A stretch of DNA of 64,000 bases from Paulownia fortunei (Eukaryota; Streptophyta; Magnoliopsida; Lamiales; Paulowniaceae): assembly GCA_019321725.1 (NCBI GenBank), contig CM033109.1:10509993-10573992 (forward strand). The letters run 5' to 3'. The notes beneath the pieces are model-generated. The model searched no databases. It had not been told where the DNA came from and saw nothing but the letters and a program-made list of their open reading frames with translations. Positions 5,933 through 57,327 of the stretch are shown here, piece after piece. Both the position numbers and the translations under genes were made by a program. Position 1 is the stretch's first letter. Every line of letters begins with the position of its first letter.

Positions 5933-5938
5933 AGTTTT

Positions 5939-5956: not shown

Positions 5957-6077
5957 TTGTTTTATCATAATTGCATTAATATTGTTATGACTTAATCTTG
6001 ATTTTAGTTTAAATTGTGTTTAGTTTCTTCCCATATTTTGATGTTGTTTTGCCTTACATTGGATTATATATATTTGT

Positions 6078-8365: not shown

Positions 8366-8700
8366 TCATTTCCTCAAACAAATTCCTATCGAACCTTTAG
8401 AGCGATGCATTGTTCATTCCATAATGCAAGGTAATGACCATGATATTGATAATGATGATTTAATGCATTACTTGCTCTTTCTTGAATCAGGAGAGGTGGA
8501 GTTGAAAAAGGATAAATGCAAGGAAGCAATAGGAGATGCCACAATCAAGGAACAAACAATATTATTGAATTTGAAAACACTTCCCGAGCATTTGCGATAT
8601 GAATTTCTAGGTGCTAACAGCACGTATCCGATAATTGTTTCTGCATCCCTATCTCCTTTAGAGGTTGAGAATTGCTTCGTATTTTAAGAAAGCATAAATC
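8366..8700 (+). pseudogene. Athila protease-RT linker
   Basis: A 115-codon open frame (8340-8687) starts in another frame inside the end of the protease, which shows a frameshift near 8340. It contains LKTLPEHLRYEFLG, the conserved segment just before RT in Athila-type polyproteins. It has no independent function. Confidence 0.7.
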
Positions 8701-32460: not shown

Positions 32461-32820
32461 AATAAACTATCAAATATGGTGCCAATCAACCAAGAAATAA
32501 GTAGAAAAAAGCAAAAAAGCAAAAAAAATAGAAAAGAAAAAGGTGATGGCCAGCAAAGGCAAGGTCTAGCCTAATAGGATGCCACAGAATAAAAAGTTGT
32601 AGCACATAGGCACCTAGGGGCTGCATTGCACCTCGAAGACTATATAGGCTAGGCACTATTGAGGCGAGTTTTTAATGTGTTGGGGCCTTTTTTTGGGGAA
32701 ATCCTTATATAAATAGGATTGGTTGAGATATTTGAGAGAATTCTCTAGTAACTTTTAATCTCCTTTCATTATAATGAAATATGTAGTGACAAAATAAGAT
32801 GTAGTCACACATTGTGGCGG
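32461..32820. other. Unassigned sequence between LINE and gypsy copy 1
   Basis: An A-rich stretch (32490-32540) may be the LINE 3' tail. 32610-32665 has CACCTAGGGGCTGC-type sequence recalling the CCTAGG repeats in the Athila LTR at 4839-4934. A TATATAAATA at 32706-32715 on the plus strand is TATA-like but no transcript can be assigned. Confidence 0.35.
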
Positions 32821-33140
32821 GGCTGAACTCTGATCCGAATTTTAGTGATTCATTTTGTGCAACTATGTAGATGAATTTTCTGTTATCATCAAGACCTAAT
32901 TAGGTTGAGCTTCCAATAGACAAATTGTACCTCTATCTCTTGTTTTTCAAATGAAATAAGCTTCAAGTCCATAGGGCTTTTGATCATGAAGTTATGCTCA
33001 AATTACAAACACTGCACAAGTATGGAAACATACTTCCATTTATTCCCTAACACAAAATATTAATAAAATAATAATATTAAGAAGAATAAAGCAAGAAAGG
33101 TATAAAGGATTTGATACAAAAATATATCAAAATATGCCCC
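32821..33140 (-). repeat. Partial 3' LTR of gypsy copy 1
   Basis: Reverse complement matches the first 330 bp of the LTR at 48000: CATATTTTGATATATTTTT, ATCAAATCCTTTATA, AAAAGCCCTATGGAC and GGATCAGAGTTCAGCCC. Similarity stops at 32821. The first few LTR bases after the GGGG-rich polypurine tract differ from copy 3. Confidence 0.82.
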
Positions 33141-34825
33141 ACACTTAACCCTTGCTTGTCCTCGAGCAAGCCTAAAACAAACATAAACTAATCCTCTTTT
33201 GTAGGAAATCACAATTGCATTTAGCATATGCAACAAGCCTTTAAACCCCTAGGGGCCCATAGAGGACAAGTTATAGTCTCGTGAAGGTTTCCAACAGTGA
33301 TACCCACAAACACCTATAATAACTATCTTCCAACTTTTATTCTCATGAAGCAACAAAATAATATGAAAATAAAATCAAATAAGTGTTAGAGTTTAACTCT
33401 TAGTCATTCAAAAATCAATACATTTCCACAATAAGCATACTCAAGTGTGTGTGTGGACAGTTAATGTCAATAGTGATGAAACTATGCATGCTTCAAATAA
33501 GGAATTCTCATAAAACCTTACAAAAACTATCACCCAATCTCTAACAGAAAAGTTAAACATCATAGGCTCTTCCTTTGGTGCAAATCTCCATTACACTGAA
33601 CATAAAAGGTCTTTAACAAAGGTTGTAATGGGGACAAAGGGTGGTAATGTATCTAAGAAATAAAAGGATAAGATGCAACAAAAATTCTAAAAACTTCATG
33701 GAATTAGAGATATAGAATTTATTGACGAAGAATTCTCAAAGTCCACAAATTTCACACTAGAGTCTATTGTTATTGAATTGGACCCCTCTTATTCATCTTG
33801 CAACATGTTAATTTTAGTTGCAACTTATAGCACTTTGTAATTTTTTTTTCTTTCTATTTTTTTTTCTTATTATTTTTTTTCTTTTTTTTAAAGAAAAACT
33901 CCTCTACACTTATCTTCTATTCCAACCTGAATTTCTTTTGTAAGTTCAAGCTGTTAATTGAATGTCTCTTAAACTCCAATCATTTTTAGAACAAATGTTA
34001 GATAATAGTGTATTTAGACTAAGTAAAAAAATATGGTTACAAAAAAAAAATATTTATTGAAAGACTGAAAGTGGTTTACTAGGGGGGTGGTTTCTTGAAA
34101 CATCATATAGGGAACAAACTGATTTGGCAATGGTGCTAGAAAGCCTAATGCCTTAATCATTTTTCTAGTAGTGCACTATCAGTCGTTCGTCTCGACACAC
34201 CAAAAGTAAAAGTTCTAATACTCAACACCTACATGTTGAAAATTCAAGTGATAATTAGAGCAAGGGCATAAGAACTATCTATTTTGACATGATTGACTTC
34301 ATACTGAATAACATAACTGTTTATGCAAAACAAAATTTGAGTATAATTATCGCAAAAATATATTAACCAAATAACAATATCAAAGTCCAAAACAACACCC
34401 ATCATCAATCAAACCATATTATTCATGCTTAATTTTAATCATTGAAGTTGGAAGAAACTCTACGACTAAAAAAAAAATTGGTAATTCACAAACATGGCAT
34501 GTTATGCAAAAATTAAGGATGCGTCTCAAGAGTATTACAATTACCCTTTACTCAACTATCATTTTTCATGCTTTCAACGGACGCATCAACAAAACACGCT
34601 TGATTTTTTTATTTTATTTTATTTTTTAAAATACTAGAAAAACACACATTGAACACACAAATAATGATATCAACTATCTCTCCCCCCAACCTAATCGAGA
34701 CATTGTCTTCAATGTCAAAAATAGATAGAAAAATAGAGTTTGAAAGATATCACCTGAAATGTAGCTAATAAAGCTGAAACAAAAAAAAAATACATACTAT
34801 TAGATAAAATCATTAACAATAAGTA
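33141..34825 (-). other. Untranslated region between LOG and the 3' LTR, copy 1
   Basis: No coding capacity is supported on either strand. Next to the LTR, minus-strand GTTAAGTGTGGGG (33141-33153) is a plausible polypurine tract, and GGTTGGGGGGAGAG (34678-34692) is another purine run. T-rich tracts occur at 33840-33893 and A-rich ones at 34044. The first 80 bp after the LOG stop are shared with copy 3, showing that this tail is element sequence. Confidence 0.6.
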
Positions 34826-35518
34826 TCACAGACTGAGAGTCAAATTCAATTTGCATTTTTGACCATTGTTCCTGTTGGACCAATCCACATTGGCTAAGGT
34901 TGGATCAGGTTCTGGCATATATGCTAGAAGTTGATCAATCAGCTGGTTAGATATTGGAGCAGAAATAAAGATTCTTCTCGCAGATGGTGAAATAAAATTT
35001 TTTTTCACAGCATGATCTACAAAAGATAGCAAACTATTATAAAAACTATTAACATTAAGAACACCTATAGATTTTTGGTGAATGTTGAGTTGTGCCCAAG
35101 AGACAACTTGGAATAATTCCTCTAGTGTACCAAAACAACCAGGTAGAATGATAAATGCATCCGCATTGTTTAACATGTTAGGCATTCTATCCTGAATATG
35201 TGACACTTTTAGCTCATCTTCAATGGTCATACCTGTGATATTCTGCACTGTTAAAGATTTTGGGATAACTCCCAAAACTTTGATACTTCCTACATAAGCA
35301 GAAATAGCAACACTCCCCATTAACCCCAAACTGTCTCCCCCATATACTAAATGAATTTTTCTCACTATTAAAGTTCTACCAAGGTTATTAGCTGCCCCTA
35401 TAAACTCACCATTTTTTTCAAGATTGGATCCACAAAAAACACAAATGCAATTGAATTTGCGAGTTGAAGAAACTTCCATTTTTTTTAATTTTTTTTCTTT
35501 TGAAAATAAGTTGTGCAA
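34826..35518 (-). CDS. LOG-like: LOG-type cytokinin riboside 5'-monophosphate phosphoribohydrolase carried by a gypsy element
   Basis: A 230-codon uninterrupted minus-strand frame, near the usual LOG length (about 210-230). LOG enzymes release active cytokinin bases from their nucleotides. Landmarks: FCGSN (28-32), YGGDSLGLMG (59-68), VLGVIPKSL (81-89), DRMPNM (110-115, with the conserved Arg), ADAFIILPGCFGTLEE (119-134), SWAQLNIHQK (140-149), SPSARRIFISAP (178-189). The initiator is probably Met14 or nearby (35476-35479), matching the copy 3 start. Most LOG genes contain several introns; none is seen here. Two motif glycines are replaced, giving YGGDS for YGGGS and PGCFGT for PGGxGT; Arg111 and Glu134 remain. 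It lies downstream of pol in the same orientation, and its flanks are shared with copy 3. The fold assignment is strong; activity is doubtful because of the motif changes. Confidence 0.9.
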   Translation of the reverse strand: MHNLFSKEKKLKKMEVSSTRKFNCICVFCGSNLEKNGEFIGAANNLGRTLIVRKIHLVYGGDSLGLMGSVAISAYVGSIKVLGVIPKSLTVQNITGMTIEDELKVSHIQDRMPNMLNNADAFIILPGCFGTLEELFQVVSWAQLNIHQKSIGVLNVNSFYNSLLSFVDHAVKKNFISPSARRIFISAPISNQLIDQLLAYMPEPDPTLANVDWSNRNNGQKCKLNLTLSL

Positions 35519-35710: not shown

Positions 35711-36310
35711 TTAAACGTGCTTCCCATCCAGTTTTCTTATAAACTGGCAAACAAGGTCTTTTAATGTCAGATTCCCAAGACTATAAAGCTCATATTCATT
35801 TCAAAAATGATCCCATAAATTAAGAATTGCACATTGTACCAATCCATATGAATGCGTCTCAAGAGTCAATATAATGTGATCTAAAAACTCCTTACTCTGT
35901 CCATTCATAATGAATTTAAGTTTATCTTCTTGATTTTTAGAAACCATTCCTAAAGAACGATATTTTTTGTTGCAATCCATCTAGCACAATTGTGACAAAC
36001 TTTTATTTTTTTCGCCCTTTATTTTTTTGAATATGTACTTTTACCAAAACCAGGCATGTATCTAGTAAGCAAATCTGAAAACTCATGTGAAAACTCACTT
36101 GCTCTTACATTTACTTTAATTATCCATTGTATGTCCCGGGATGCCTTGTGCATAAGGATCCTCAATCTTTCAATCCTGATTTTATAAATTTTCAAAATTG
36201 TATTTTTAGGAAGAAAAAGAAATCGCTTCTTGAGAGTTAAAAAAATATCACCTATTTTGAAAAGAACAAAAAAAGAGAATGAGAAAAGCATAGAAAAATT
36301 ATACAAAGAT
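35711..36310 (-). pseudogene. ORF-A of gypsy copy 1: basic, Cys-containing protein of unknown function
   Basis: Minus strand, between integrase and LOG. The first 95 codons (36306-36019) read with GDIFLTLKKRFLFLPKN, RIERLRILMHKASR and HEFSDLLTRYMPGFGKS. After a stop in the lysine-rich segment, another frame gives KVCHNCARW and, past a one-base slip, RSLGMVSKNQEDKLKFIM, LDHIILTLE and VCQFIRKLDGKHV, ending at a TAA at 35711-35713. The same order exists in copy 3. I do not recognise the family. The charged N-terminal half followed by CxxC pairs suggests nucleic-acid or zinc binding, which is inference only. The true start is unclear. Confidence 0.55.
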
Positions 36311-36375
36311 TTCAGTTGTTTGAAAAACTCACAAGTCCGACTTTTATAGCAACGGAGTACTAAGTATATACAACA

Positions 36376-37240: not shown

Positions 37241-37725
37241 TCATTAATATATGGGGTTTGAAATGAGTCATCACAAACAAGTCTCGACAAATGATTAGCC
37301 ACTACATTCTCTACTCTCTTTTTATCTCGAATAGTAATATTAAATTCCTAAAGTAAGAGAATCCACCTAATCAATCTTAGTTTAGTATCTTTTTTTGACA
37401 AAAGATATTTTAAAGTTGCATGATCACTGAAAACAACAATTGGTGAGCCAAGAAGATAAGATCGAAATTTGTCCAATGCAAAAACTACATCAAGTAATTC
37501 TTTTTCAGTTGTTGCATAATTCAATTGAGCACTATTTAAAATTTTACTTGCATAGTAAATAACATATGCTTTCTTATCTTTTCTTTGTCCCAAGACAGCT
37601 CCAACAGCATAATCACTAGCATCACATATTATTTCAAAAGATAAAGTCCAATCTAGAGGCTGCATGATTGGAGCACACGTAAGCATGCTTTTCAGCTTAA
37701 CAAAAGTATTTTCACAGTTTTCAGT
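37241..37725 (-). pseudogene. RNase H of gypsy copy 1
   Basis: Minus strand. A 112-codon open piece contains [20 protein letters not shown] (first catalytic Asp), [21 protein letters not shown] (the catalytic Glu region) and [16 protein letters not shown], the gypsy RNase H signature in order. A stop then precedes [10 protein letters not shown]. The active-site residues visible here are intact. Confidence 0.87.
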
Positions 37726-38865
37726 CTATTCAAAAATAGTGTTTTTTGTTATAAAATTACACAAAGGTTTAGATATTATACTAAAATCTTTGATAAATCT
37801 TCTATAAAAAACAGCATGTCCTAAAAATGATCTAACCTCCTTCACAGTCTTTGGTGTTGTTAAATTGGCAATTAACTCAATTTTAGATTTGTCAACCTCA
37901 ATACCTTCTGATGAAATAATGTGTCCAAGAACAATACTAGTTGTTACCATGAAGTGACATTTCTCCCAATTGAGCACAAGATTCTTTTCTTCACACCTGA
38001 TCAAAATCTTTTCTAAATTAGATAAGCAATCATCAAATGAATTACCAAAAATGGAAAAATCATCCATGAAGACTTCAAGAAAATATTCAACCATGTCACT
38101 AAAAATACTAAGCATGTATCGTTGGAATGTAGCTGGTGCATTACATAATCTAAAAGGTATCATTTGATATACAAAAGTACCAAAAGGACATGTAAAAGTT
38201 GTTTTCTCTTAATCTTCAAGTGCAATTACAATTTGATTATACCCAGAATATCTATCTAAAAAATAATAAAATTCGTATCCCATAACTCTTTCTAAAATTT
38301 GATCCATGAAAGGTAATGAAAAATGATTTTTTTTAGTAACTGAGTTAAGTTTCCTATAGTCGATGCACATTCGCCAACCAGTAACAGTCCTAGTTAGAAT
38401 TAATTCATTATTCTCATTCTTGACTATATTAACTCTAGATTTCTTAGGTACAACTTGAGTAGGACTTACCCATTCGCTATTAGAAATAGAATAAATGATT
38501 CTATTATCTAAGAGTTTAATGACTTCATTTCTCACTACTTCTTTCATATTAGGATATAGCATTCATTGCATTTCTCTAGAAGGTTTAGCATTTTCCTCTA
38601 GATAGATGTTATGTGTGCAAATGAAAGGATTAATACCTTTAATATCAGCAATGATCCATCCTAAAGCATTCTTATGCATTTTCAGAGTTTCGATCAACTT
38701 ACCTTCTTAAGATGCATCGAGTTTAGAAGAAATTATTACTGAAAAAGTCTCATTTTCACCCAAGAAAGAGTATTTCAAATTAACTGGCAAATATTTCAAA
38801 TCTACCACGAGAGCTTTAATACTTGATGGAATAGATTTTACTATTGAAGATGAAAGTTCTTCGAA
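37726..38865 (-). pseudogene. Reverse transcriptase and linker of gypsy copy 1
   Basis: Minus strand. The linker contains a VDLKYLPVNLKYSFLGENE-like segment (38740-38820). RT runs from MKEVVRNEVIKLLDNRIIYS through GWRMCIDYRKLNSVTKKNHF, FLDRYSGYNQI, FGTFVYQMIPFRLCNAPATF and VFMDDFSIFGN, with catalytic FMDD at 38059-38070, to GHAVFYRRFIKDFSII. There are two long open pieces (38562-38209 and 38163-37726) separated by a single stop after IALED. Confidence 0.9.
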
Positions 38866-40260
38866 CCCCTAATTTCCATGGTTTAAACTCTGAAATCTCT
38901 TACTTGCATTTAAAAGAATTTGATGAGGTATGTGCTACTTTTTTATGATCAAACCTATACAAATAAGATTATTAAGTTCAAATTATTTTCTTTTTATTTA
39001 AAAGATAAGGCAAAAACTTACCTTAATACTTTAAAATCTAGGTCAATTGGCACTTGGCAAGAAATGCAAGCTGAATTTTAGAAAAAATTCTTTCCAACTA
39101 ATAAAACTAATGTTTTGAAAAGACAAATCCAAAACTTCTCTCAAAATTCTAATGAAACTTTCTTTCAATATTAGGAATGATTTAAAAATTTGTTGAATTC
39201 ATGCCCACATCATGGTTTGAAAAATGATGCATAATTAGTTTATTTTATAAAGGTTTAACTCGTGAAACAAAATAATTTGTTGAAACAATGTGTAATAGTG
39301 AGTTTCTTGATAAAAAAACCTAATAAAGACCTAGAATATCTAGACCATTTGGTAGAAAACTCTCAATTATAGCATAGTGTTAATTCTTTCGAAGGTTCTA
39401 TTAGATCTAAACTTACTAATAGTAATAAAGAAAACTATTATCTTAGTCAAGAAAATGATCTAAATGCTAGGATTGTTAGTTTAATAAAAAAAGTTGAATC
39501 CATGGAACTTAAAAAAGTTAAGGAAATAAAATGTGCAAGAGAAAGAAGTTTGTAGTAATTGTAAACTTATGGGGCACTCCACCAATGAATGTATAAATAT
39601 TCCAGTATAAGCAAATTTCATGAACACATTCAAAGCTTTTTTATTCTCCATATTCTGAAACTTACAATCCATAATGGAGAAATCATCACAATTTTAGTTG
39701 GTGAGATGATAATCATGCTCAACCGCTACATTCACAAAAGCCACCAAACTTTTCTTCTTATCGAGCTCCACATACAAAATCCCTTGAGGTGACTTTGCAA
39801 GTATTTTTTCATGAACAAACAAACAATAATAATCAAAATTCACAAGCCATCAATGAGATCAAAATTACACTTTCAACACTAACTGTCTCTTTGCGCACTT
39901 AGGAAAAAGGTAAGCTTTCAGCTCAACCTCAACCTAATCCTTCCACTCAGTGTTATATTTCTTCTTCAGGTGAAAATTTAGCCAAGGAGGCTAATTTGGT
40001 CACTACTCTTTCAAGTGGAAAGGTTGTTGACAAGACTATTCATCCCAAGGAAAAAAATTCTTATCCACCTTCATGAATGAATAATGAAAATAATGTTGAC
40101 AATGAAAGTAAGTTTAATGAAGGTAAATGTGAAAATGATGAAAAAAAATATTCACCTCCAACACCTTTTCTTCAAAAATTGCAACCAACTTAGAAATTAA
40201 ACTCAAATTCTGAAATCTATGAACTTTTTCAACAATTCAAGATTAATATTCCATTGTTAG
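38866..40260 (+). pseudogene. gag of gypsy copy 2
   Basis: Broken plus-strand frames contain ISTWQEMQAEF (near 39045), KFFPTNKT, a degraded YEGLTRET region near 39250, and a zinc knuckle of the form C-x2-C-x4-H-x4-C near 39548-39590 in another frame. The region after the knuckle (39600-40200) parallels 50690-51300 of copy 3, including STLTVSLR and TLSSGKVVDKTIHPK. Many stops and shifts. Confidence 0.8.
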
Positions 40261-41290
40261 ATACAATCAAACAAGTTCCTTCTTATGCCAAATTTTTGAA
40301 AGATTTATGTACAATCAACAGAAAACATCTGGTATAAAAGAATGTATTTTTAACTAAAAGTGTTAGTTCAATCATTTAATAATTCACTCTACCCAAGTAC
40401 AAAGATCCAGGTTGTCCAACCATTTCATGTACTATAGGAAACACAAAAATAAAGCATGCTTTGCTTGATCTTGATGCTTGTGTAAATCTTCTACCTTTCT
40501 CATTTTATAAACAATTAGGTTTGACAGAACTTCAAACAACTTTTGTTGTACTCCAACTAGCTGGCCGTTCAATTAAAGTTTCAAAGGAGTAGTAGATGAT
40601 GAGTTGGTACAAATTGATAAGTTTTACTTTCTAGTGAATTTCATTATTTTGGACATACAGCCTATTGCACACACACATACATAGATTCCTATCATTTTGA
40701 GTCGTCCTTTTCTTACAACTTCAAATGCTTTGATCAATTACAGGAATGATATTTTGAAGTTGTTGTTTGGAAATATTAATTTGGAATTAAATGTGTTTAA
40801 TATTTGTAAGCAACCTGCAAAAGATATCAAAGCACATGAAGTGGATTCAATCGAGGAACTTGTTCATGAATATTTTACTACAGCTAATTCTTTAGATCCT
40901 TTGGAGACTTATTTTGAAAGTGAAAGTATTTATAAAAAGACACATTCTAATACTCTCTCTGAATTTTCACAAGTACAAGAAAAATATTTTTGGAAGCCAA
41001 GGTTTAGAAAAATCTCATCATCGACAGTATAATCTCTTCTATCATGTATTAAAGCTCCTGTAATTGATTAGAAATATTTGCCATTTGATTTGAAATACTC
41101 TTTTTTGGGTGAGAATGAGACTTTTTCAGTAATAATTTCTTTCAAACTTGATGCATCCCAAGAAGGTAAGTTGATCGAAACTCTGAAAATACATAAGAAT
41201 GCTTTAGGATAGACCATTGTTGACATTAAAGATATTAGTACTTTAATTTGCACACATAGCATATATCTAGAGGAAAATTCTAAACCTTCT
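40261..41290 (+). pseudogene. Protease and linker of gypsy copy 2
   Basis: DPGCPTISCTIGNTKI leads to LLDLDACVNLLPF, the active-site position where the usual DLGAS has become DLDAC, which would abolish catalysis. LSRPFLTTSNALINYRND is the second protease block, and a 111-codon open piece (40697-41032) covers it and the linker. An (AC)n insertion (40669-40681) near LFWTYS is absent from copy 3. Confidence 0.82.
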
Positions 41291-42620
41291 AGAGAGATGC
41301 AACGAATCCATTAAACTCTTAGATAATGGAATCATTTATCATATTTCTGATAGCAAAATGGATAAACCCTACTCAAGTTGTACCTAAGAAATATGGAGTT
41401 ACTGTAGTCAAGAATGAGAATGATTAATTAATTCCAACTAGAACTGTTAGTGATTGGTGAATTTGCATTGACTAAAGAAATCTCAATTCAATTACTAGAA
41501 AAGATCATTTTCCACTACCCTTCATGGATCAAATCTTAGAAAGATTTGCGGGACATGAATATTACTACTTCTCATATGGATATTTTGGGTATAATCAAAT
41601 TTCAATTGCACTTGAAGATCAAGAGAAAATAACTTTTACATGTTTTTTTTGGTACTTTTGTATATCAAATTATGTTTTTTCGATTATGTAATACACCAGC
41701 TACATTCCAATGATGCATGCTTAGTATTTTTAGTGACATGATTGAATGTTTTCTTGAGCTGATGATTTTTCTATTTTTGGTAATTCATTTGATAATTGTT
41801 TGTCTAATTTAGAAAATGTATTGATCAGGTATGAAGAAAATAACATTGCACTCAATTGGGAGAAATGTCATTTCATTGTAACAACTGGTATTGTTTTTGG
41901 ACATATTATTTTGTCAAAAGGTATTGATGTAGACAAATCTAAAATTAAATTAATTACCAATTTGTTAATACCAAAGTCTGTGGAAGAGGTAAGATTATTT
42001 TTAGGGCATGCAGGTGTTTACAAAAGATTTATCAAAGATTTTAGTATAATATCTAAACCTTTGAGTAATCTTCTAAAAAAAGACACTATATTTGAATGGA
42101 CTGAAAATTGTAAAAATACTTTTGTTAAACTTAAAAGCATGCTTATATCTGCTCTAATCATGCAGCCTCCAGATTGGACTTTACCTTTTGAAATAATGTG
42201 TAGTGCTAATGACTAAGCTGTTGGAGCTGTCTTAGGATAAAGAAAAGATAAAAAAATCATATATTATTTACTATGAAAGTAAAACTCTAAATAGTGCTCA
42301 ATTGAATTATTCAACAACTGAAAAATAATTCTTTACTATAGCTTTTGCATTAAACAAATTTAGATTTTATCTTCTTGACTCACTAGTTGTTGTTTTCAGT
42401 GATCATGCAGCTTTGAAATATCTTTTGTCAAAAAAAATGCCAAACCTAGATTGATTAGTTGGATTTTCTTATTCAAAGAATTCAACATTACGATTCGAGA
42501 TAAGAAAGGAGTTGAGAATGTGGTGGTTGATCATTTGTCGAGACTTGTTTATGATGACTCAATTCATATCAAACCTATTAATGACATTTTTCCTGATGAA
42601 CAACTATTTAATGTTTATAT
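41291..42620 (+). pseudogene. RT and RNase H of gypsy copy 2
   Basis: RT blocks are recognisable but badly broken (41330-41760). A short deletion near 41757 removes bases of the FMDD active site. A 138-codon open stretch (41800-42216) runs from the RT thumb through HAGVYKRFIKDFSIISKPLS to the start of RNase H (PFEIMCSAND). The rest of RNase H has frameshifts. Encoded enzymes are inactive. Confidence 0.83.
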
Positions 42621-43905
42621 TTTACCTTAGTTTGCTGACATTGTTGATTTTCTTGTGACAGGAAAGATGTTATCACATTGGAAATCCCAAGACAAAAAAA
42701 AGTTTTTAACTGAGGTGAAAAACTTTTATTGGGACGATCCATACCTATTCAAATATTATCCTAATCAAATATTTCGAAGATGCGTACCTGAAAATGAGAT
42801 AGGTAATATTATTAAATTTTGTCATTCAAAAACATGTGGTGGTTACTTTTTGGCAAAGAAAACTATTGCAAAGATCTTGTAATATAGATTTTATTGGCCA
42901 ACTCTTTTCAATGACACTTAAAAATTCTGCAAAAGTTGTGAAAATTGTCAAAAGTTAGGGTCGAAACATAATGCCCCTACATCCTATCCTAGTGATTGAA
43001 ATCTTTGATTGTTGGGATATTGACTTCATTGAACTATTTTCATTATCATTTGATTTTCTTTATAGATTAGTCCCATAGATTATATCTCAAAATGGATCGA
43101 GGCAATTCCTTGTCAAAATAATAATCACAAAATAGTGATAAAATTTTTGAAAGAAAATATTTTAAGTTGATTTAGAATTCCTCGATTCATTATCAGTGAT
43201 GGTGGAAAATATTTTTGTAACAAAGTTTTTGGTACTTTAATGAGAAAATATGAAATCATACATAAAGTTGCAACCCCTTATCACCCTCATACAAATGGAC
43301 AAGTTGAACTTCTAAATAGGGAGATAAAATAAATTTTGAAAAAGACAGTTAATCCAAATCGTAAAGATTGGTCTCATAGACTTATTGATACACTTTGGGC
43401 ATATGAAACTATTTTCAAAGCATCATTAGGTATGTCTCATTATAGGATAGTTTATAGTAAACCTTGTCATTTACCTATTGAACTTGAACATAAAACTTAT
43501 TGACCAATCAAAATGTTTAACTTCAACCTTGATGAAGCTTTAAATTTGCGCAAATTGCAAATCAATGAACTTCAAAAATTGAGAAATGATGCATATGAGA
43601 ATTCTAAAATTCATAAAGTAAGAATCAAAGATTTTCATAATAATAAAATTTCAAGAAAAATATTTGAGGTTGGTCAAAAGGTTTTGCTTTATAATTCTCG
43701 ATTGCATTTATTTTCTAGAAAATTGAGATCAAGGTAGAGTGGTCTTTTTATTGTAAAAAATGTATATCCTTATGGGGAGAATGATATTGAGAATCCTAGA
43801 AATGGTAACGTATTCAAAGTAAATGGAAAAAGACTCAAACCATTTCTAAAAAATCAATTTCCACAAGAGGAAATTCTTTTTCTTTCCAACCCTTGTTATG
43901 ATTAG
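42621..43905 (+). pseudogene. Integrase of gypsy copy 2
   Basis: The zinc region (RRCVPENEIGNIIKFCHSKT; FYWPTLF; KSCENCQKL), core (WDIDFIEL; ISDGGKYFCNKVFG; HPHTNGQVELLNREI with the glutamate kept) and C-terminal module (RKLRSR, VNGKRLKPFL) are all present in order between stops. It is the least deleted integrase of the three copies, yet not translatable. Confidence 0.85.
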
Positions 43906-43979
43906 TATGTGATACTTATTTTCTGTAACTTTATTTATTTTGTAGGCTTTCTTTCTATTTTTTGTCCCATGGATTGTGG

Positions 43980-47700: not shown

Positions 47701-47999
47701 TCTGGTTAGATACATAACAATTAATACAATTTTTATTTAAGCTATTTAAAAAACTTACAGTCTGGCTATAGTAAAAGGCGAATCAGATGGTATAGCAACT
47801 GCTAGCGAGTGACTGAAAAAAAGAAAATTCATTTATTAAACTTAATAAAAAGATATAAATACCAGACATTTAATGAGACCATGCAACAAACTTCATATAT
47901 CTAGCATTTTGTTTAAAATGATCAGCAGATTACAACAACTAAGGTAGTTACAACAACAACTAAGTAATATTCAAACTTAGTATAACTCTTCAACAATGA

Positions 48000-49589
48000 T
48001 GACAAGTGCATATTTTGACATATTTTTATATCAAATCCTTTATACTTTTCTTGCTTTATTCTTGTCAATATTATTGTTTTATTAATATTTTATGTTAGGG
48101 AATCAATGAAAGCATGTTTCAAGACTTGTGTAGTTTTTGTATTTTGAGCATAACTTCACGATCAAAAGCCCTATGGACCTGAAGCTTATTTCATTTGAAA
48201 GTCAAGAGATAGAAGTACAACTTTTTTTTTGAAAACTCAGCTTAATTCAGTCTTGATTATAGCATAAAATTTGTCCAAATGGTTGCACAAAATGAATCAC
48301 CAAAATTTGGATCAGAGTTCAGCCCATTATTAACTTATTTGACCAATTGGGTCATATCTCTTAAACCCAAATTTATTTTGGGTTGAAATTTAGATATGTT
48401 ATACAAAAGAGGTAATAAAAAAGTTTGTTGAAGATAGAATGGTAAAAAAATATGTCAAATGGAAAAACATAGGTTGCAAGTTGCTGCTACTGTTAAAGGA
48501 TAACTTTTGAATAACCATATCTCCTTCATCCGACCGCCAAATTTGACAAATGATATATGAAAATATATCAACTCGAAAGATCTACAATTTTGGTTCTTTA
48601 CACATCTTTGAAATCTGGTTGTATATGACCGAAAAATGTAATTCAATTCGGTAGGTGAGGACTTGGTGTAACAACTTACCAACTCTTGACAACTAGCATA
48701 CCACTTGATTAAACCCTCCATTATTTATTTGGCCTCTAGCTTACTCCAAGTACTATAAATAGGTCATGTATTAAATTTGTAAGAGAGGGGGGTAGATGGT
48801 TTTTTAAGGCTAAGTTTTCTAGTTTATATGTTTTCTAGTAATGTAAGTTTTCTAGTACTAATAGAAATACATTCTCTAGTTTCTCTTATATTTTTAGTCT
48901 TTGCTATGTTTATTATGTCTTTCTAAATTTCATTTTGTTGAGCAAAAAGAGTGAACCTCTTGATGGAGGAAGAGGAATGATTATAAGAGAAGAAAATATT
49001 TAAGTATGTTGTATTATTATTTTAAGTTTTGATCTAAACCTTGTTTGTTTTGTGATGATTCTTAATTTATGTATTTTCATTGGCACAACAAATACTTTGG
49101 CTCATTTAGCTTATTGTACAATTTTGCTCCACCGACTACTAATATGAAACCTTGATTTGTTGTTGACAAAGGTGTGCATAAATATTTGATCCCATAAATA
49201 AGTGTTGGCGTTAAGAGATAATTTACAATAATAAGACAATATCATGATTACCTTATTGCATGAGTTATTTGATAATATCTACCCATTGGAACCTTCATTA
49301 TGTATGAATTTCAATTATGGCAATTAACAGAGATAAAAGAATAAATAATTGTTTCTCTATCCAAAACTCAAAAGTGGATCCTTAATTCTCTATACTTTTA
49401 TTACTTTGGTTTTTCTTAGTTACACCATACATTAAATTTTTCATATATTTTGATTTACATAAACTCCATCTTTTTAGAAATATAAACTTGAATTCTCCAA
49501 ACAACTTCCTTGTGGATCGACCTTGGACTCACGAGAAATTTATTACTTAATATAACCTGCACTTGGTTTTCAACCTTAAAGTTGTAGCA
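48000..49589 (+). repeat. 5' LTR of gypsy copy 3
   Basis: 1590 bp, TG...CA ends. A TATAAATA box lies at 48754-48761, with transcription expected about 30 bp later. It is the reference for the partial LTRs at 32821-33140 and 56644-57200. Confidence 0.92.
48754..48761 (+). promoter_or_regulatory. LTR TATA box of gypsy copy 3
   Basis: TATAAATA in the middle of the LTR, the usual place for the U3/R boundary in long-LTR gypsy elements. The same part of the LTR is missing from the other two partial LTRs of the family. Confidence 0.55.
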
Positions 49590-49595
49590 AGTTTT

Positions 49596-49613
49596 TGGCG
49601 TCGTTACCAGGGA
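49596..49613 (+). promoter_or_regulatory. Primer binding site for tRNA-Asp, gypsy copy 3
   Basis: TGGCGTCGTTACCAGGGA, six bases after the LTR, matches the complement of the plant tRNA-Asp 3' end except at three positions. It is the same primer class as the element at 4272-16913. Confidence 0.88.
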
Positions 49614-49687: not shown

Positions 49688-51315
49688 ATGGTTACATGGT
49701 ATCGTAGTCATAATTCTCGGCGTTTAGTTAGAAATAATTCTAAAACTTTATTTGGAAATTTATTCGAATCATCTCCACATACTTCCACTATGGTTGAAAA
49801 TAAAAGTATCCAGGATGACAATGAGAATCAACAAGTGCATACTATGCGTTATTACTTGCAACCTCCTCGAAATTCTTCTCCTTCTTGTTTCATTTTTTCT
49901 CTCAATGCAAATAACTTTTGATTCAAGTCAAGTATGATCCCTTTACTTCCTAATTTCCATGGTTTATACTCTAAAAGCCCTTACTTACATTTGAAATAAT
50001 TTGAAGAAGTATGTGCCACTTTTGATGATCAAACTTGCACAAATGAGATCGTTAATCTCAGATTATTTCCTTTTTCTTTAAAAGATAAAATAAAAAATTG
50101 GCTTAATTTTTTAAAACCTAAGTCAATTAGCACTTGGCAAGAAATACAAGCTGAATTTTTTAAAAAATTCTTTCCAACTCATAAAACTAATGCTTTGAAA
50201 AGACAAATTCAAAATTTTTCTCAAAATTCTAATAAAACATTCTTTCAATGTTAGGAAGATTTAAAAAAATTTTGAATTCATACCCACATCATGGTTTTAA
50301 AAAATGGCACTTAATTAGTTTCTTTTATGAAGGTTTAACTCGTGAAACAAAATAATTTATTGAAATAATGTGTAAAGGTAAGTTTCTTGATAAAGAACTT
50401 GATGAAACCCTTGAATATTTAGATCATTTTGGTAGAAAACTTTCAATCATGGCATAGTGTTAATTCTTCCGAATGTTCTATTATATCTAATCTGGCTACT
50501 AGTAATAAAGAAAATATTACCTTAGCCAAGAAGATGACCTAAATGCTAGGCTTGCTAGTTTAACAAGAAAAGTTGAAGCCATGGAACTTAAAAAAGTAAA
50601 AAAAAATCAAATATGTACAAGAGAAGAAGTTTGTAGCAATTGTGAACTATTGGGGCACTCTACCAATGAATGTCCAAACATTCTAGTACAAGCAAATTTC
50701 ATGAACACATTCAAAAAAAATTTCCATTCTCCATATTCTAAAACTTACAATCCACAATGGAGAAATCATTCTAATTTCAGTTGGCGAGATGTTAAGCGTG
50801 CCCAGCCGTTGCATTCACAAAAACCACCAAACTTTCACTCTTATCCAGCTCCATATATAAAATCCCTTAAGGAGACTTTGCAAGCATTTATGCATGAACA
50901 AACAAAAATCAATAATCAGACTTCACAAGATATCAATGAGATCAAAAGCACACTTTCAACATTAACAGCTTCTTTGCGTATTCATGAAAAAGGTAAATTT
51001 CCTGCTCAATCTCAACCTAATCCTTCCACTCAGTGTCATGTTTTTTCTTTAGGTGAAAATTCAGTCAAGGAGGTTAATTCAGTCGCAACTCTTCGGAATG
51101 GAAAAGTTATTGATAAGACTATTCATCCTAAGGAGAAAGTTTTTAATCCACCTCTAGAAATGAAGAATAGAAATAGTCTTGACAATGAAGGTAAATTTAA
51201 AAAAGGTAAGTGTGAAAATCATGAAGAAAAAAAATATTTACCTCCAGCACCCTTTCCTCAAAGATTGCAAGCAACTCAAAAATTGAACTCAAATGCTGAA
51301 ATTTTTGAAATTTAA
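49688..51315 (+). pseudogene. gag of gypsy copy 3
   Basis: The frame opens at 49688 (MVTWYRSHNSRRLVRNN) and shifts after NANNF. The capsid region has FHGLYSKSPYLHLK, LRLFPFSLKDKIKNWL, STWQEIQAEFFKKFFPTHKT and FSQNSNKTFF. A long open piece (50581-51315, 244 codons) contains a complete knuckle, CSNCELLGHSTNEC (50632-50673), and a polar C-terminal tail. About 90 bp present in copy 2 (around 40230-40330) are deleted at 51315. Gag forms the particle and packages RNA. Confidence 0.87.
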
Positions 51316-52230: not shown

Positions 52231-53640
52231 TGCTAAACCTTTTAGAGAAATACAATGAAGGCTAAATCCTAATATGAAAGAAGTAGTGAGAAATAAAGTC
52301 ATTAAACTCTTAAATAATGGAATCATTTATCCTATTTCTGATAGAAAATGGGTAAGTCCTACTCGTACCTAAAAAATCTGGAGTTACTGTAGTCAAGAAT
52401 GAGAATGATGAATTAATTCCAACTAGTGCTGTTACTGGATAGCGAATGTGCATTGACTATAGAAAACTCAATTGAGTTACTAGAAAATATCATTTTCCAT
52501 TACCTTTCATGGATCAAATTTTAGAAAGAGTTGCGGGACATGAATTTTATTGCTTTTTAGATGAATATTCTGGGTCTAATCAAATTACAATTGCACTTGA
52601 AGATCAAGAAAAAATAACTTTTACATGTCATTTTGGTACTTTTGCATATCGAATGATGCCTTTTGGATTATGTAATGTACCAGCTATATTCCAACGATGC
52701 ATGCTTAGTATTTTTAGTGACATGGTTAAACATTTTCTTGAAGTCTTCATGGATGATTTTTCTATTTTTGGTAATTCATTTGGTGATTGCTTGTCTAATT
52801 TAAAAAAGATTTTGATCAGGTGTGAAGAAAAGAATCTTGTGCTCATTTGGGAGAAATGTTATTTCATGGTAACAACTTGTATTGTTCTTGGACACATTAT
52901 TTCATCAAAAGGTATTAAGGTTGACAAATCTAAAATTTAGTTAATTATCAAATTGCCAACACGAAAGACTGTGAAGGAGGTTAGATCATTTTTAGGATAT
53001 ATTGATTTTTATACAAAATTTATCAAAGATTTTAGTATAATATCTAAACCTTTATGTAATCTTTTAACAAAAGATACTATTTTTGAATGGACTGAAAATT
53101 ATGAAAATGCTTTTGTTAAGTTTAAAAGCATACTTACATCTGCTACAATCATGCAGCCTCCATGTTGGAATTTACTTTTTGAAATAATGTGTGATGCTAG
53201 TGATTATGTTGTTGGAGCTGTCTAGAAAAAGATAAGAAACCATATGTTATTTACTATGCAAGTAAAACTTTAAATAATGCTCAATTGGATTATACAACAA
53301 CTGAAAAAGAATTACTTGTTGTAGTTTTTGCATTAGATAAATTTCAGTCTTATCTTGTTGCCTCACTAGTTATTTTCAGTGATCATACAACTTTGAAATA
53401 TCTTTTTGTCAAAAAAAGATATCAAACCAAGACTGATTAAGTAGATTCTTTTACTCTAGGAATTTAATATTACGATTCGAGATAAGAAAGGAGTAGAGAA
53501 TGTGGTGGTTGATTATTTGTCGAGACTTGTTTGTGATGACTCGTTTCAAACCACACCTATTAATGACATTTTTTCTCATGAACAACTATTTAATATTTCT
53601 ATTTTACCTTGGTTTGCTGACATTGCTAATTTTCTTGTGA
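52231..53640 (+). pseudogene. RT and RNase H of gypsy copy 3
   Basis: The best open piece (52509-52940) carries FLDEYSGSNQITIAL, HFGTFAYRMMPFGLCNVPAIF and FMDDFSIFGNSFGD (FMDD at 52746-52757). The N-terminal fingers have two frameshifts near 52365 and a stop at 52441. RNase H keeps FEIMCDASDYVVGAV, then loses frame at 53225. The tether segment VENVVVDYLSRLVCDD (near 53500) is intact. Confidence 0.87.
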
Positions 53641-54895
53641 CAGGAAGGATGCCATCACATTGGAACTCTCAAGATAAAAAGAAGTTTTTGACTAAGGTTA
53701 AAAAATTTTATTGGTATGATCCATACCTATTCAAATACTGTTCGGATCAAATCTGTCGAAGATGTGTGCCTAATAATGAGATAGGTAATACTGTCAAATT
53801 TTGTCATTCAGAAGCATGTAGTGGTCATTTATCAGTAAAGAAAACTACTGTAAAAATCTTGTAATGTGGATTTTATTGGCCAACTCTTTTCAAAGACACT
53901 CTTTCTACAAAAGTTGTGAAAACTGTCAAAAGTTAGAGCCCCTTTCAAAGAGAAATATGATGTCCCTACACCCTATTCTAGTGATTGAAATCTTTGATTG
54001 TTGGGGTATTGATTTTATGGGGTCATTTCCATTATTATTTGATTTTCTTTACATATTGGTTGTCATAGATTACGTTTCAAAATAGATCGAGGCAATTCCT
54101 TATCGAAATAATGATCACAAAATAGTGATAAAATTTTTGAAAGAAAATATTTTAAATCGATTTACAATTCCTAGATCTATTATCAGTGATGGAGAAAAAT
54201 ATTTTTGTAACAAAGTTTTTGGAACTTTAATGAGGAAATATAGAATCATACATAAAATTGCAACTCCTTATCACCCTCAGACAAATAGACAAGTTAAACT
54301 TGCAAATAGGAAGATAAAATAAATTTTGAAAAAAATAGTTAACCCAAACCACAAAGATTGGTTTTTTAGATTTACCGATACACTTTGGGCATATAGAACT
54401 GCTTTCAAAATATTATTAGGCATGTCTCCTTATACGATAGTTTTTGAAAAATCTTGTCATTTATCTATTGAACTTGAACATAAAGCTTATTAGGCAATCC
54501 AAATATTTAACTTCAACCTTTATGAAACTTCAAAATTGTACAAATTGTAAATTAAAGAAATTCAAGAACTGAGAAATGATGTATATGAGAATTCTAAAAT
54601 TTATAAAGTAAGAATCAAAGATTTTCATGATAAAAAAATTTCAAGAAAAATATTTGAGGTTGGTCAAAAGGTTTTGTTATACAATTCTCGATTGCATTTG
54701 TTTCCTAGAAAATTGAGATCAAATTGGAGTGGTCCTTTTGTTGTAAAAAAAAGTATATCCTTATGGGGCGATTGACATTGAGTATCCTAGAAATTGTAAC
54801 ATATTCAAAGTTAATGGACAAAGAGTTAAACCATTTCTAGAAAATCAATTTTCACAAAAGAAAATTCTTTTTTTTTCTAACCCTTATTATCATTA
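53641..54895 (+). pseudogene. Integrase of gypsy copy 3
   Basis: Zinc region: FCHSEACSGH, then ENCQKL. Core: CWGIDFMGSF (first Asp), IISDGEKYFCNKVFG (second Asp) and HPQTNRQVKLANRKIK, where the catalytic Glu is replaced by Lys. C-terminal module: [15 protein letters not shown] and [14 protein letters not shown]. Stops at 53862, 54083 and 54320, and a one-base insertion near 54750, break the frame. Unlike copy 1 there is no large deletion. Confidence 0.87.
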
Positions 54896-54973: not shown

Positions 54974-55646
54974 GTGGCGAATAACGGTACTCCATCGTTA
55001 TTAAAGTCGACTTATGAGTTTTCCAAACAACTGAAATCTTTATACAAATTTTCTTTGATTTTCTCATTCTCTTTTCTTATTCTTTTCAAAATGGGTGATA
55101 TTTTTCTAACTCTCAAGAAGCGATTTTCTTTTCTTCCTAAAAATGCAATTTTGAAAATTTATAAAATCAAGATTAAAAGATTGAGAATACTTATGCACAA
55201 AGGCATCTCGGAGAACATACAATGGATAATTGAAGCAAAGCTAAGAGCAGGTGAGTTTTCACATGAGTTTCCAGATTTACTTACTAGATATATGTCTGAT
55301 TTTGGTAAAAGCACATGTTCAAAAAAACAAAGGGCAAAAAAAAAAAGTTTGTCACAATTGTGTTAGATGGACTTGCAACACAAAGTGTCGCTCTTTAGGA
55401 ATGGTCTTTAAAAATTGAGAAAGTAAACTTAAATTCATTATGGATGGACTGAGTCAGGAGTCTTTAGATCACATTATATTGACTCTTAAGATGCATTCAT
55501 GTGGATTGGTACAACGTGTAATTCTTGATTTATGGGATCATTTTTTAAATAAATATGAGTTTTATAGTCTTGGGAATCTGACATTAAAAGACTTTGTTTG
55601 TCAGTTTATAAGAAAACTGGATGTGAAGCATATCCTCGACCCATAG
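54974..55646 (+). pseudogene. ORF-A of gypsy copy 3: basic, Cys-rich protein of unknown function
   Basis: It starts about 80 bp after the integrase stop. 54974-55366 is open from a GTG; the first ATG in the conserved part is MGDIF near 55090. It reads LKKRFSFLPKN, IKIKRLRILMHK, HEFPDLLTRYMSDFGKS. After a slip in a lysine run (55325-55350) the conserved frame continues with CHNCVRWTCNTKC (C-x2-C-x4-C-x3-C), RSLGMV and, from 55440, SQESLDHIILTLKMHS and LKDFVCQFIRKL. The same order is in copy 1. No family is recognised. The lysine run and four cysteines suggest nucleic-acid binding by inference only. Confidence 0.6.
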
Positions 55647-55886
55647 AAGGCGTTTAAGTCGTTACTAGGTATAAAATCAGAGGAAGATATGAGCCACAAT
55701 CGCAACTACATGTGTATTCACGTGTAAGTAGGTAATTTTTAAATTTTGTGTGTGTCCTTATTTTCAACCTTTTGACAAAAGAAAAAGACATGCAATAAAT
55801 GTATTCATGTTCATACCTCAATAAATATCATCGTACTCACTCTATTTTTGCACAACTTATTTTCTAAAATAAAAAAAATAAAAAAA
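55647..55886 (+). promoter_or_regulatory. Conserved leader between ORF-A and LOG, copy 3
   Basis: It aligns with 35519-35710 of copy 1, including GACAAAAGAAAAAGACATGC and CAATAAATATC (55819-55829), then TTTTTGCACAACTTATTTTC just before the LOG start. The TATA-like motif is suggestive of an internal promoter, but nothing demonstrates one. Confidence 0.3.
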
Positions 55887-56538
55887 ATGAAAGTTTCTTC
55901 AACTCATAAATTCAATTGCATTTGTATTTTTTGTGGATCCAACCTAGGAAAAAATGGTGAGTTTATAGGGGCAGCTAATAACTTTAGTAAAACTTTAGTA
56001 AAAAAAAATTCATTTAGTGTATAAGGGAGGCAGTTTGGGGTTAATGGGGAATGTTGTTATTCCTACTTATGTAGAAGATGTCAAAGTTCTGGGAGTTATC
56101 CCAAAATCTTTAACAGTACAGAATATCACAGGTATGACAATTGGAGATGAGCTAAAAGTATCACATATTCAGGACAGAATGCCTAACATATTAAACAATA
56201 TGGATGCATTCATCATTCTATCTAGCGGTTTTGCTACACTGGAGGAATTATTCCAAGTTGTCTCTTAGGCACAACTCAACATTCACCAAAAACCTATAAG
56301 TATTCTTAATATTAATGATTTTTATGATGGTTTGCTATCTTTTGTAGATCATGCTGTGAAAAAAAATTTTATTTCACCATATGGGAGAAGAATCCTCATT
56401 TATGCCCCAACAACTGACTAGTTGATTGATCAACTTCTAGCATATGTGTCAGAGCCTAATCCAGTCTTGGCCAATATGGATTGGTCCAACAGGAACAATG
56501 GTCGAAAACACAAATTGCACTTGACTCTCAGTTTGTGA
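55887..56538 (+). pseudogene. LOG-like: LOG-type cytokinin-activating gene in gypsy copy 3, broken
   Basis: Start ATG at 55887, stop TGA at 56536-56538, collinear with the copy 1 ORF and about four-fifths identical in protein by eye. One extra A in an A-run (56001-56008) shifts the frame. In-frame TAG codons at 56266-56268 (a Trp in copy 1) and 56419-56421 (a Gln in copy 1) are single transitions. FCGSN and the central stretch from VLGVIPKSL to DRMPN are unchanged. The first glycine motif reads YKGGS and the second SSGFAT, so the two copies have lost different motif residues. No introns. It is inside the AATGA-bounded element, same sense as pol, so it is cargo and not a neighbouring gene. Confidence 0.92.
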
Positions 56539-56643
56539 TACTTATTGTTAATGGTTTTATCTAATAGTATGTGTTTTTTTTTTGTTTCACCTTTATTTTT
56601 CTAGCCACACTTCAGGTGATATCTTTCAAACTCTACTTTCCTA

Positions 56644-57200
56644 TCTAAACCCTGCTTGTTTGTGGTGATTCTTGACTTATGTATCTTCAATGGCTAACAA
56701 ATACTTGGGTTCATTTAGCTTATTGTATGGTTTACCCCACCGACTGCTAATGTGAAACCTTAATTTGTTGTTGATAAAGGTGTACATAAATATTTGATCC
56801 CATAAATAAGTGTTGGTATTAAGAGATAAATTGCAATAGTAAGATAATATCATGATTACCCTATTGCATGAGTTATTTGATAATATCTTCTCATTGGGAC
56901 CTTCATTATGTATAGATTCCAATTATGGCAATTAACAGAGGTAAGAAGAATAAATAATTATTTTTCTATCCAAAACTCAAGAGTGGATCCATAATCCTTA
57001 GTACTTTTATTACTTTAGTTTTTCTTTAGTTACACCATACATTAAATTTTTCATATATTTTGAATCACATAAACTCCATCTCTTTAGAAATATAAACTTC
57101 AATTCTTCAAATAACTTCCCTGTAAATCAACCTTGAACTCATGAGAAATTTATTACTTACTATAACCTGCACCTGGTTTTGCAACCTTAAAGTTGTAGCA
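56644..57200 (+). repeat. Truncated 3' LTR of gypsy copy 3
   Basis: It matches 49028-49589 (the last 555-560 bp of the LTR) with many point differences. The left edge joins directly to untranslated element sequence about 100 bp after LOG (TCTACTTTCCTATC, also in copy 1 at 34725-34740), so 3' tail and LTR start were deleted after insertion. The outer end is intact and followed by AATGA. Confidence 0.9.
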
Positions 57201-57327
57201 AATGATATGTGAAATCATAATTGGGTTGAGAATATTTAATAACTAACATATTGTTCAATAGAGATAAATAAGTAAAAATACTTAACAAAATGAAGTAAAA
57301 TAAAAGTTAATAGTTGATACCATCAAA

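What the first reader, a model, noticed from the sequence alone, without database searches (positions are those of the whole stretch)
54974..56538. An Athila-lineage LTR retrotransposon family carries a cytokinin-activating LOG-type gene as cargo
In copy 3 the LOG sequence (55887-56538) lies between pol and the 3' LTR, in the sense orientation, inside an element whose limits are proven by AATGA duplications. Copy 1 (34826-35518, minus) has the same order: integrase, ORF-A, leader, LOG, 3' tail. Flanking non-coding sequence is shared on both sides, so the gene was captured before the copies spread. The slot is where Athila elements often hold an env-like ORF. Gene capture by plant LTR retrotransposons is known (maize Bs1 is the classic case), but I know of no described family with LOG as a fixed accessory ORF. 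A mobile gene for local cytokinin release could matter to the host if any copy is active.
Basis: partly seen in the sequence, partly recalled or inferred. Interest (0 to 1): 0.92.

Follow-up and report, generated by a model that had tools for sequence, protein, structure and literature searches.

The report
Retrotransposon-borne, rewired LOG enzyme lineage
A family of plant jumping genes carries a gene for a LOG enzyme, a kind known for releasing the hormone cytokinin, which was likely captured once long ago; most of the related proteins examined lack residues thought to hold the hormone's side chain and end in a tail predicted to work in the nucleus, so it may do something other than make cytokinin.

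Summary
An Athila-type LTR element (48000-57200, AATGA on both sides) has a LOG gene between pol and the 3' LTR. A second, truncated copy has the same order and an open 217-codon LOG frame (34826-35479). Homology stops inside the element, so this is not a segmental duplication. Both window copies look old and decaying; the LOG of copy 3 is broken.

The window LOG groups with 149 listed database proteins, apart from 151 host LOGs. Named members are from Lamiales, Malvales, Malpighiales and Sapindales. One Xanthoceras gene model joins such LOGs to Athila-like gag/protease sequence. LOG domains in Citrus and Populus retrotransposons were already reported, so LOG as cargo is not new.

I found no report of the changes in the enzyme. 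Catalytic Arg and Glu are kept (140 and 143 of 149), but Lys100 and Glu125 of the inferred prenyl pocket are lost in 128 and 130 of 149 and kept in 151 of 151 hosts. A C-terminal LxLxL (EAR-like) is present in 111 of 149 and 0 of 151. "Cytokinin-activating" is therefore doubtful; I predict a nuclear nucleotide hydrolase with a changed substrate. The source genome could not be searched.

The parts
47995..47999 (.). Target-site duplication AATGA, left
   Evidence: Sequence
48000..49589 (+). 5' LTR of copy 3 (TGACAAGTG...GTAGCA)
   Evidence: its last part, 49032-49589, is repeated at the 3' end
49596..49613 (+). Primer-binding-site-like TGGCGTCGTTACCAGGGA; tRNA-Asp assignment recalled, not computed
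   Evidence: a similar site follows the 5' LTR of the other Athila-like element (5932-5956)
50000..50254 (+). gag fragment (Retrotrans_gag)
   Evidence: Pfam PF03732 E=7.7e-12
50509..51315 (+). gag C-terminal part and linker to protease
   Evidence: Open frame; 52.5% match over 40 residues of its end to P0013 of Xanthoceras
52476..52940 (+). Reverse transcriptase fragment
   Evidence: Pfam PF00078 E=5.4e-18
52941..53225 (+). RNase H-like domain start
   Evidence: Pfam PF17919 E=6.8e-9
53460..54480 (+). Integrase region, broken by stops
   Evidence: Only a weak PF17921 match (E=0.11); otherwise read and homology between copies
54974..55366 (+). ORF-A of copy 3, unknown, with a hydrophobic stretch
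   Evidence: no Pfam match
55887..56538 (+). LOG gene of copy 3, broken (frameshift and in-frame stops)
56643..57200 (+). 3' LTR remnant of copy 3 (about the last third)
   Evidence: 88.8% to 49032-49590
57201..57205 (.). Target-site duplication AATGA, right
   Evidence: Sequence
34826..35479 (-). LOG ORF of copy 1, 217 codons open; C-terminus CKLNLTLSL; catalytic Arg and Glu kept, PGG changed to PGC
36019..36375 (-). ORF-A of copy 1
   Evidence: no Pfam match
37348..37725 (-). RNase H domain of copy 1
   Evidence: Pfam PF17917 E=3.5e-33
37726..38208 (-). Reverse transcriptase of copy 1
   Evidence: Pfam PF00078 E=6.2e-14
34679..34695 (-). First polypurine-like tract, just after the LOG tail
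   Evidence: Sequence
33137..33150 (-). Second polypurine-like tract at the LTR border
   Evidence: Sequence
32820..33143 (-). Truncated 3' LTR of copy 1 (start approximate)
   Evidence: 32820-33137 is 87.4% to 48008-48325
38868..43963 (+). Copy 2: gag-pol only, truncated before the LOG slot (uninformative on LOG)
4272..16913 (+). Separate Athila-like element with LTR pair (likely AGAAC duplication) and no LOG found: control

Best explanation
An Athila-type LTR retrotransposon family carries, between pol and the 3' LTR, a LOG-family gene with an uninterrupted frame that likely was captured once from a LOG7-type host gene and whose product is predicted to be a nuclear nucleotide hydrolase with a changed substrate instead of a normal cytokinin activator. 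Shown: the cargo position; a grouping with 149 listed database proteins apart from 151 host LOGs; conserved catalytic Arg/Glu and phosphate loop; loss of Lys100 and Glu125 of the inferred prenyl pocket in most of these; and a C-terminal LxLxL tail not seen in the host LOGs. Inferred: capture as a spliced mRNA by template switching during reverse transcription; expression from the LTR promoter; import into the nucleus by the basic stretch; binding of TOPLESS-type corepressors by the LxLxL tail; benefit to the element by altering host transcription or nucleotide signals in cells where it replicates. The two window copies look like decayed relics of this lineage and are likely inactive.
For: Position, LTR pair and TSD. 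Cargo in two copies with unrelated flanks. One group: 40 of 40 cargo-type rows on one side of a branch, 97/97, in 100% of 200 bootstrap trees (the program notes that its bootstrap had not fully settled); 39 of 39 in an earlier 70-row tree; 149 versus 151 rows in a tree of the 300 listed proteins (cargo support 0.953). Window nests with Paulownia (100/99), next to Rehmannia and Orobanche. Xanthoceras gene model P0013 joins LOG, Athila-like gag/protease linker and LOG. Many copies: 46 of the 120 clusters listed are Reevesia loci with 18 different chromosome-like prefixes; one Orobanche hederae cluster holds 244 sequences. Length 216 or 217 aa in 106 of 129 cargo rows without the Sapindaceae type. 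R99 140/149, E122 143/149, G116 144/149, T119 145/149 in cargo, all 151/151 in hosts; K100 kept 21/149, E125 19/149, both lost in 128, and 151/151 kept in hosts (residue roles from PMC4979012). LxLxL in the last 14 residues 111/149 versus 0/151, shuffles mean 7.3, maximum 16 of 149; a basic pattern near the end 131/149 versus 3/151; LxLxL is one consensus of the EAR motif (PMC9956375, passages). Host rows with a LOG number in the list of proteins nearest to the Sapindaceae cargo are LOG7 or LOG7-like. Fold: AlphaFold mean pLDDT 84.4; best PDB matches AtLOG8 and AtLOG3.
Against: Most of the 149 proteins were seen without DNA context; they are called cargo by grouping and copy number, and 120 of them are by construction the best hits of the window LOG. 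The tree does not place the group inside LOG7; it falls beside the host LOGs with a single distant bacterial root, and the host side has no support of its own (0.104). 21 of 149 keep Lys100 (20 Sapindaceae-type rows and P0254) and 19 of these keep Glu125, so part of the lineage may still activate cytokinin. No assay of substrate, nuclear entry or TOPLESS binding exists; the tail is unstructured in the model (pLDDT mostly under 50). In CgLOG, alanine at AMP-binding residues almost abolishes activity, so loss of Lys100 could also mean a dead or weak enzyme. NCBIfam's cytokinin-LOG model scores the window LOG far below its cut-off (91.8 of 300) but also a host LOG7 (135), so it does not decide. 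Between the two window copies there is no clear sign of selection (dN/dS 0.79; differences 35/22/18 at codon positions 1/2/3).
Confidence: 0.5

Rival explanations
1. The cargo is an ordinary cytokinin-activating LOG: the element makes active cytokinin in the cells where it is expressed and so favours dividing or meristem cells.
For: LOG fold; catalytic residues kept; the 5 Xanthoceras rows keep all five pocket residues.
Against: In the window LOG Met96, His97, Lys100 and Glu125 are replaced by Ile, Gln, Met and Gln; K100 is lost in 128 and E125 in 130 of 149 cargo rows and in none of 151 host rows.
Confidence: 0.2
2. The LOG is a passenger: captured by chance, carried along by hitch-hiking, without function for element or host.
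For: Both window copies seem to drift nearly neutrally; a simulation of substitutions alone leaves the frame open in about 26% of runs at 6% change, so the open ORF of copy 1 is not proof of selection.
Against: Near-constant length (106 of 129 at 216-217 aa), catalytic residues at 94-96%, and one tail design in rows named from Lamiales, Malvales and Malpighiales.
Confidence: 0.18
3. The 149 proteins are mainly a host LOG subfamily that expanded by itself; the window element picked up one of its members.
For: Most members were seen without DNA context.
Against: 46 listed Reevesia loci with 18 chromosome-like prefixes and a 244-member cluster in Orobanche; Athila-like linker inside P0013; published LTR-retrotransposon consensus sequences with the domain in Citrus and Populus.
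Confidence: 0.06
4. LOG was captured several times by different elements.
For: Sapindaceae-type rows lack the LxLxL end and branch first.
Against: All 40 cargo rows fall on one side of a branch in 100% of 200 bootstrap trees; P0254 links the two types, with pocket kept and tail present.
Confidence: 0.06

Closest known systems
LTR-retrotransposon consensus sequences with a YgdH (LOG) domain in Citrus sinensis, C. clementina and Populus trichocarpa (PMC9289625; section 12 read)
   Same: LOG-family domain inside LTR retrotransposons (Gypsy type in that survey); Populus rows fall in the same group as the window LOG.
   Different: The parts read give no tail, pocket, single-origin or lineage analysis; no Lamiales or Malvales members are named for this domain there.
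Phalaenopsis Gypsy elements with an AlkB-type RNA demethylase ORF (PMC9289625; abstract and passages)
   Same: Captured enzyme kept as an accessory ORF with conserved active-site residues.
   Different: Other enzyme, found only in two Phalaenopsis species of that survey, large (25 kb) Ogre-like element; its activity was assayed.
Plant LONELY GUY enzymes, LOG7 group and AtLOG3/AtLOG8
   Same: Fold, catalytic Arg/Glu, PGGxGTxxE loop.
   Different: Prenyl-pocket Lys/Glu lost in most cargo rows; new basic plus LxLxL tail; multicopy and mobile.
Env-like 3' additional ORFs of Athila elements (PMC7264820, PMC11728184; passages)
   Same: Same slot, sense strand, between pol and 3' LTR.
   Different: No LOG domain is mentioned in the passages seen; here ORF-A precedes LOG and may be their counterpart (untested).
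EAR-motif repressors such as AtZP1, LDLELRL (PMC9956375, passages)
   Same: LxLxL motif, most often C-terminal in that survey.
   Different: Those surveyed are transcriptional repressors; here the motif ends a LOG-fold enzyme.

Membership tests
LONELY GUY (LOG) family | Lysine_decarbox/LOG domain with PGGxGTxxE | tested here: met
   PF03641 E=1.2e-32, TIGR00730 above cut-off; G116 kept in 144 of 149 related rows, but PGC in the window copy.
LONELY GUY (LOG) family | Catalytic Arg99 and Glu122 (CgLOG numbering) | tested here: met
   Present in the window LOG; 140/149 and 143/149 in related rows.
Cytokinin-activating LOG (narrow sense) | Prenyl-site residues Met96, His97, Lys100, Glu125, Trp129 | tested here: not met
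   Window LOG keeps only Trp129; the site itself is inferred from structures by its authors.
Cytokinin-activating LOG (narrow sense) | Hydrolysis of cytokinin riboside 5'-monophosphates | not testable with these tools
   Needs an enzyme assay.
LTR retrotransposon | LTR pair, 5-bp TSD, gag, RT, RNase H | tested here: met
Athila lineage | Branch with Athila in RT/RH/INT trees | not tested
   No reference Athila sequences at hand; the label rests on recalled PBS and polypurine features and on the 3' ORF slot.
Athila lineage | No additional RNase H (aRH), which marks Tat (PMC6317226, passages) | tested here: inconclusive
   Only the RT-linked RNase H was found in the pieces scanned; the frames are broken.
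EAR-motif protein | LxLxL motif | tested here: met
   LNLTLSL at the C-terminus of copy 1; 111 of 149 related rows.
EAR-motif protein | TOPLESS binding and repression | not testable with these tools
   Needs binding and reporter assays.

The most novel reading that the evidence does not exclude
A plant retrotransposon lineage took a cytokinin-activating enzyme once, before the split of several eudicot orders, and over that time turned it into a nuclear, corepressor-binding nucleotide hydrolase that no longer sees cytokinin: an enzyme of the element's own, acting on host transcription or on a nucleotide signal, passed on in dozens to hundreds of copies per genome.
Probability: 0.3. Interest if true: 0.88.

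Novelty: new variant of a known kind. Interest (0 to 1): 0.68.

Why it matters
Accessory genes of plant LTR retrotransposons most often lack known domains, and their function is an open question. Here the fold, the catalytic residues and the host relatives are known, the pocket change is specific, and the tail matches a known corepressor-binding motif, so function can be tested directly with a purified protein and a short peptide. It would also correct gene annotation: some proteins labelled cytokinin riboside 5'-monophosphate phosphoribohydrolase or LOGL10 (for example in Populus and Rehmannia) fall in this group and would be mobile-element proteins, which could inflate LOG gene-family counts.

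Tried and rejected
Segmental duplication of one LOG locus: rejected, homology stays within the element. LOG as a general Athila trait: not supported, another Athila-like element in the same window (4272-16913) gave no LOG hit by tblastn with the 120 proteins at E<=1e-3; 366 hits in all, outside the two LOG genes only two, both by the linker of P0013. Copy 2 as a LOG-less member: not usable, truncated before the slot. Open frame of copy 1 as proof of selection: rejected by simulation (substitutions only, with fewer transitions than observed, no indels). Viral contigs as a source of related elements: two scans, no relatives. Own-genome copy count: unanswered. Donor by tree: unresolved; only similarity points to LOG7. 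The residue counts (115 rows without 5 Xanthoceras rows) were replaced, which add 29 rows, among them P0254, an exception with both pocket residues and tail. Row choices: the 70- and 74-row trees are hand-picked subsets of the listed proteins plus the window and one bacterial row; one search uses all 300. The listed proteins are the best 120 of each search (578, 7997 and 7999 matches), so weaker relatives were not examined. The query has the tail, which may favour tailed hits; the query lacks LxLxL and still brought 14 tailed new rows.

Full report
What is there. The window is plant-like DNA (31.5% G+C; a plant snoRNA match; plant LOG and retroelement relatives). Copy 3 is an LTR element from 48000 to 57200, with AATGA directly on both sides, a primer-binding-site-like sequence after the 5' LTR, fragments of gag, reverse transcriptase and RNase H, an unknown ORF-A and then LOG (55887-56538). 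Its 3' LTR is a remnant of 558 bp of a 1590-bp LTR. Copy 1, on the minus strand, is truncated in pol at 38867 and has ORF-A and a LOG frame of 217 codons (34826-35479), two polypurine-like tracts and a short LTR piece. The two copies match from pol through LOG and its tail; the flanks tested are unrelated.

State of the window copies. Copy 3 LOG is broken by a frameshift and stops. The LTRs of copy 3 differ by K=0.107, the LOGs of copies 1 and 3 by 0.129, with 66 transitions and 9 transversions. dN/dS between the LOGs is 0.79 and the differences are 35/22/18 at codon positions 1/2/3 (one pair, no confidence interval), so the copies seem to have drifted with little constraint. The 13% protein difference between the window LOG and Paulownia proteins is close to what a neutral simulation gives at 6% substitutions (12.9%). 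The source is therefore likely Paulownia or a near relative (inference). The open frame of copy 1 is not evidence of selection on that copy: substitutions alone leave it open in 26% of simulations at that level.

Relatives. Three protein searches listed 300 different proteins: the window LOG as query, a profile of AtLOG3 and AtLOG8, and Xanthoceras P0068; each lists only its best 120. In a tree of 74 rows all 40 cargo-type rows lie on one side of a branch (97/97; 100% of 200 bootstrap trees; bootstrap not fully settled), with the window LOG beside Paulownia (100/99) and then Rehmannia and Orobanche. A FastTree of all 300 plus the window and one bacterial row splits them into 149 cargo-type and 151 host-type (cargo support 0.953, host support 0.104, so the host side is not a supported clade). 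All 120 hits are on the cargo side, with 29. Orders from the taxonomy tool: Lamiales, Malvales, Sapindales (four species); Populus as Malpighiales, and the places of Orobanche, Diplodiscus and Acer, are recalled.

Why these are mobile. 46 of the 120 clusters listed are Reevesia loci, with 18 chromosome-like prefixes in their names, and one cluster of Orobanche hederae holds 244 sequences. Xanthoceras gene model P0013 reads LOG, then a stretch 50-52.5% identical over 40-44 residues to the gag/protease linker of the window elements, then LOG again. PMC9289625 reports the YgdH domain, as found in LONELY GUY proteins, in LTR-retrotransposon consensus sequences of two Citrus species and of P. trichocarpa (section 12). 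For the other proteins mobility is inferred from the grouping.

How the enzyme changed. Residue roles are from the CgLOG structure paper (PMC4979012, section 6 and passages): Arg99 and Glu122 are proposed catalytic; Met96, His97, Lys100, Glu125 and Trp129 are an inferred prenyl-group site. In the 149 cargo rows Arg99 is kept in 140, Glu122 in 143, Gly116 in 144, Thr119 in 145, Trp129 in 143, Met96 in 117 and His97 in 85. Lys100 is kept in only 21 and Glu125 in 19; both are lost in 128. All 151 host rows keep all of these. Lys100 becomes Met, Ile or Leu (127 of 128), and Glu125 Gln or His (123 of 130), so the change is directed and not scattered. In the window LOG Met96, His97, Lys100 and Glu125 are Ile, Gln, Met and Gln, and Gly116 is Cys.

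The tail. 111 of 149 cargo proteins, and 0 of 151 hosts, have LxLxL in the last 14 residues, usually after a basic stretch, as in KKRKLDLTLRL; a basic pattern near the end is in 131 of 149 and 3 of 151. Shuffling the last 18 residues gives 7.3 of 149 on average and at most 16 in 500 trials. LxLxL is one of the two consensus forms of the EAR repression motif, most often C-terminal (PMC9956375, passages). Twenty Sapindaceae-type rows (Xanthoceras, Acer and four unnamed) keep Lys100, many with a basic end without LxLxL (KKRRLA, KRRRLD). P0254 has the pocket and the LxLxL tail, a possible intermediate: basic end, then LxLxL, then pocket loss. That order is an inference. The Orobanche rows have lost the exact LxLxL (DAFLSL).

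Mechanism. Shown: position, grouping, residues, tail, predicted fold (AlphaFold mean pLDDT 84.4, residues 203-217 mostly under 50; best PDB matches AtLOG8 and AtLOG3). Inferred: capture of a spliced LOG7-type mRNA (plant LOG genes having introns is recalled; host rows with a LOG number near P0068 are LOG7 or LOG7-like, but the tree does not place the group inside LOG7), transcription from the LTR, nuclear entry, TOPLESS contact, changed substrate. My estimates: captured mobile LOG lineage of one origin 0.9; changed or lost cytokinin activity in the window's branch 0.65; nuclear/corepressor role 0.4; all together about 0.3.

Known or new. Athila elements often have extra 3' ORFs (PMC7264820, PMC11728184; passages), and LOG domains in LTR elements were reported (PMC9289625; Steinbauerova 2011 cited there, not seen). 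Passages of a plant LOG family paper (PMC11593424) held no mention of a tail like this one. In ten searches of the held library, whose listings I read, I saw no paper on the tail, the pocket loss or the single origin; most subscription papers are not held. Hence: new variant of a known kind.

Limits. The source genome could not be searched. DNA of relatives was not available, so there is no dN/dS among young copies. The Athila label was not tested on a reference tree.

Noticed in passing
4272-16913: Separate Athila-like element with LTR pair (4272-5934, 15311-16915 by BLAST), likely AGAAC duplication, similar primer-binding site, ~5 kb between pol and 3' LTR and no LOG found.
   Followed up: partly
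6605-6711 (minus): Rfam snoR71 match (51.5 bits) lies antisense inside a gag-like frame (6566-6928) of the LOG-less Athila-like element.
   Followed up: no
12739-13754: Direct tandem duplication of about 500 bp, 96% identical, inside the LOG-less element between pol and 3' LTR.
   Followed up: no
38867/38868: Copies 1 and 2 abut head to head, one cut in pol and one in gag, which suggests a rearrangement or deletion between two inserted elements.
   Followed up: no
54974-55643 and 35718-36375: ORF-A has a hydrophobic stretch, and a second coding-like piece follows it before LOG; neither has a Pfam match above cut-off. They may be remains of the usual Athila 3' ORF.
   Followed up: partly
44429-44889 (minus): ORFs that look like a Mutator-type transposase (recalled resemblance) just downstream of the truncated copy 2.
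   Followed up: no
34679-34695 and 33137-33150 (minus): Copy 1 has two polypurine-like tracts about 1.5 kb apart, one right after LOG and one at the LTR border.
   Followed up: no
database proteins P0013, P0014, P0051: Xanthoceras gene models with two LOG copies or parts in one protein, P0013 with an Athila-like linker between them: likely annotation of mobile elements as host genes.
   Followed up: partly
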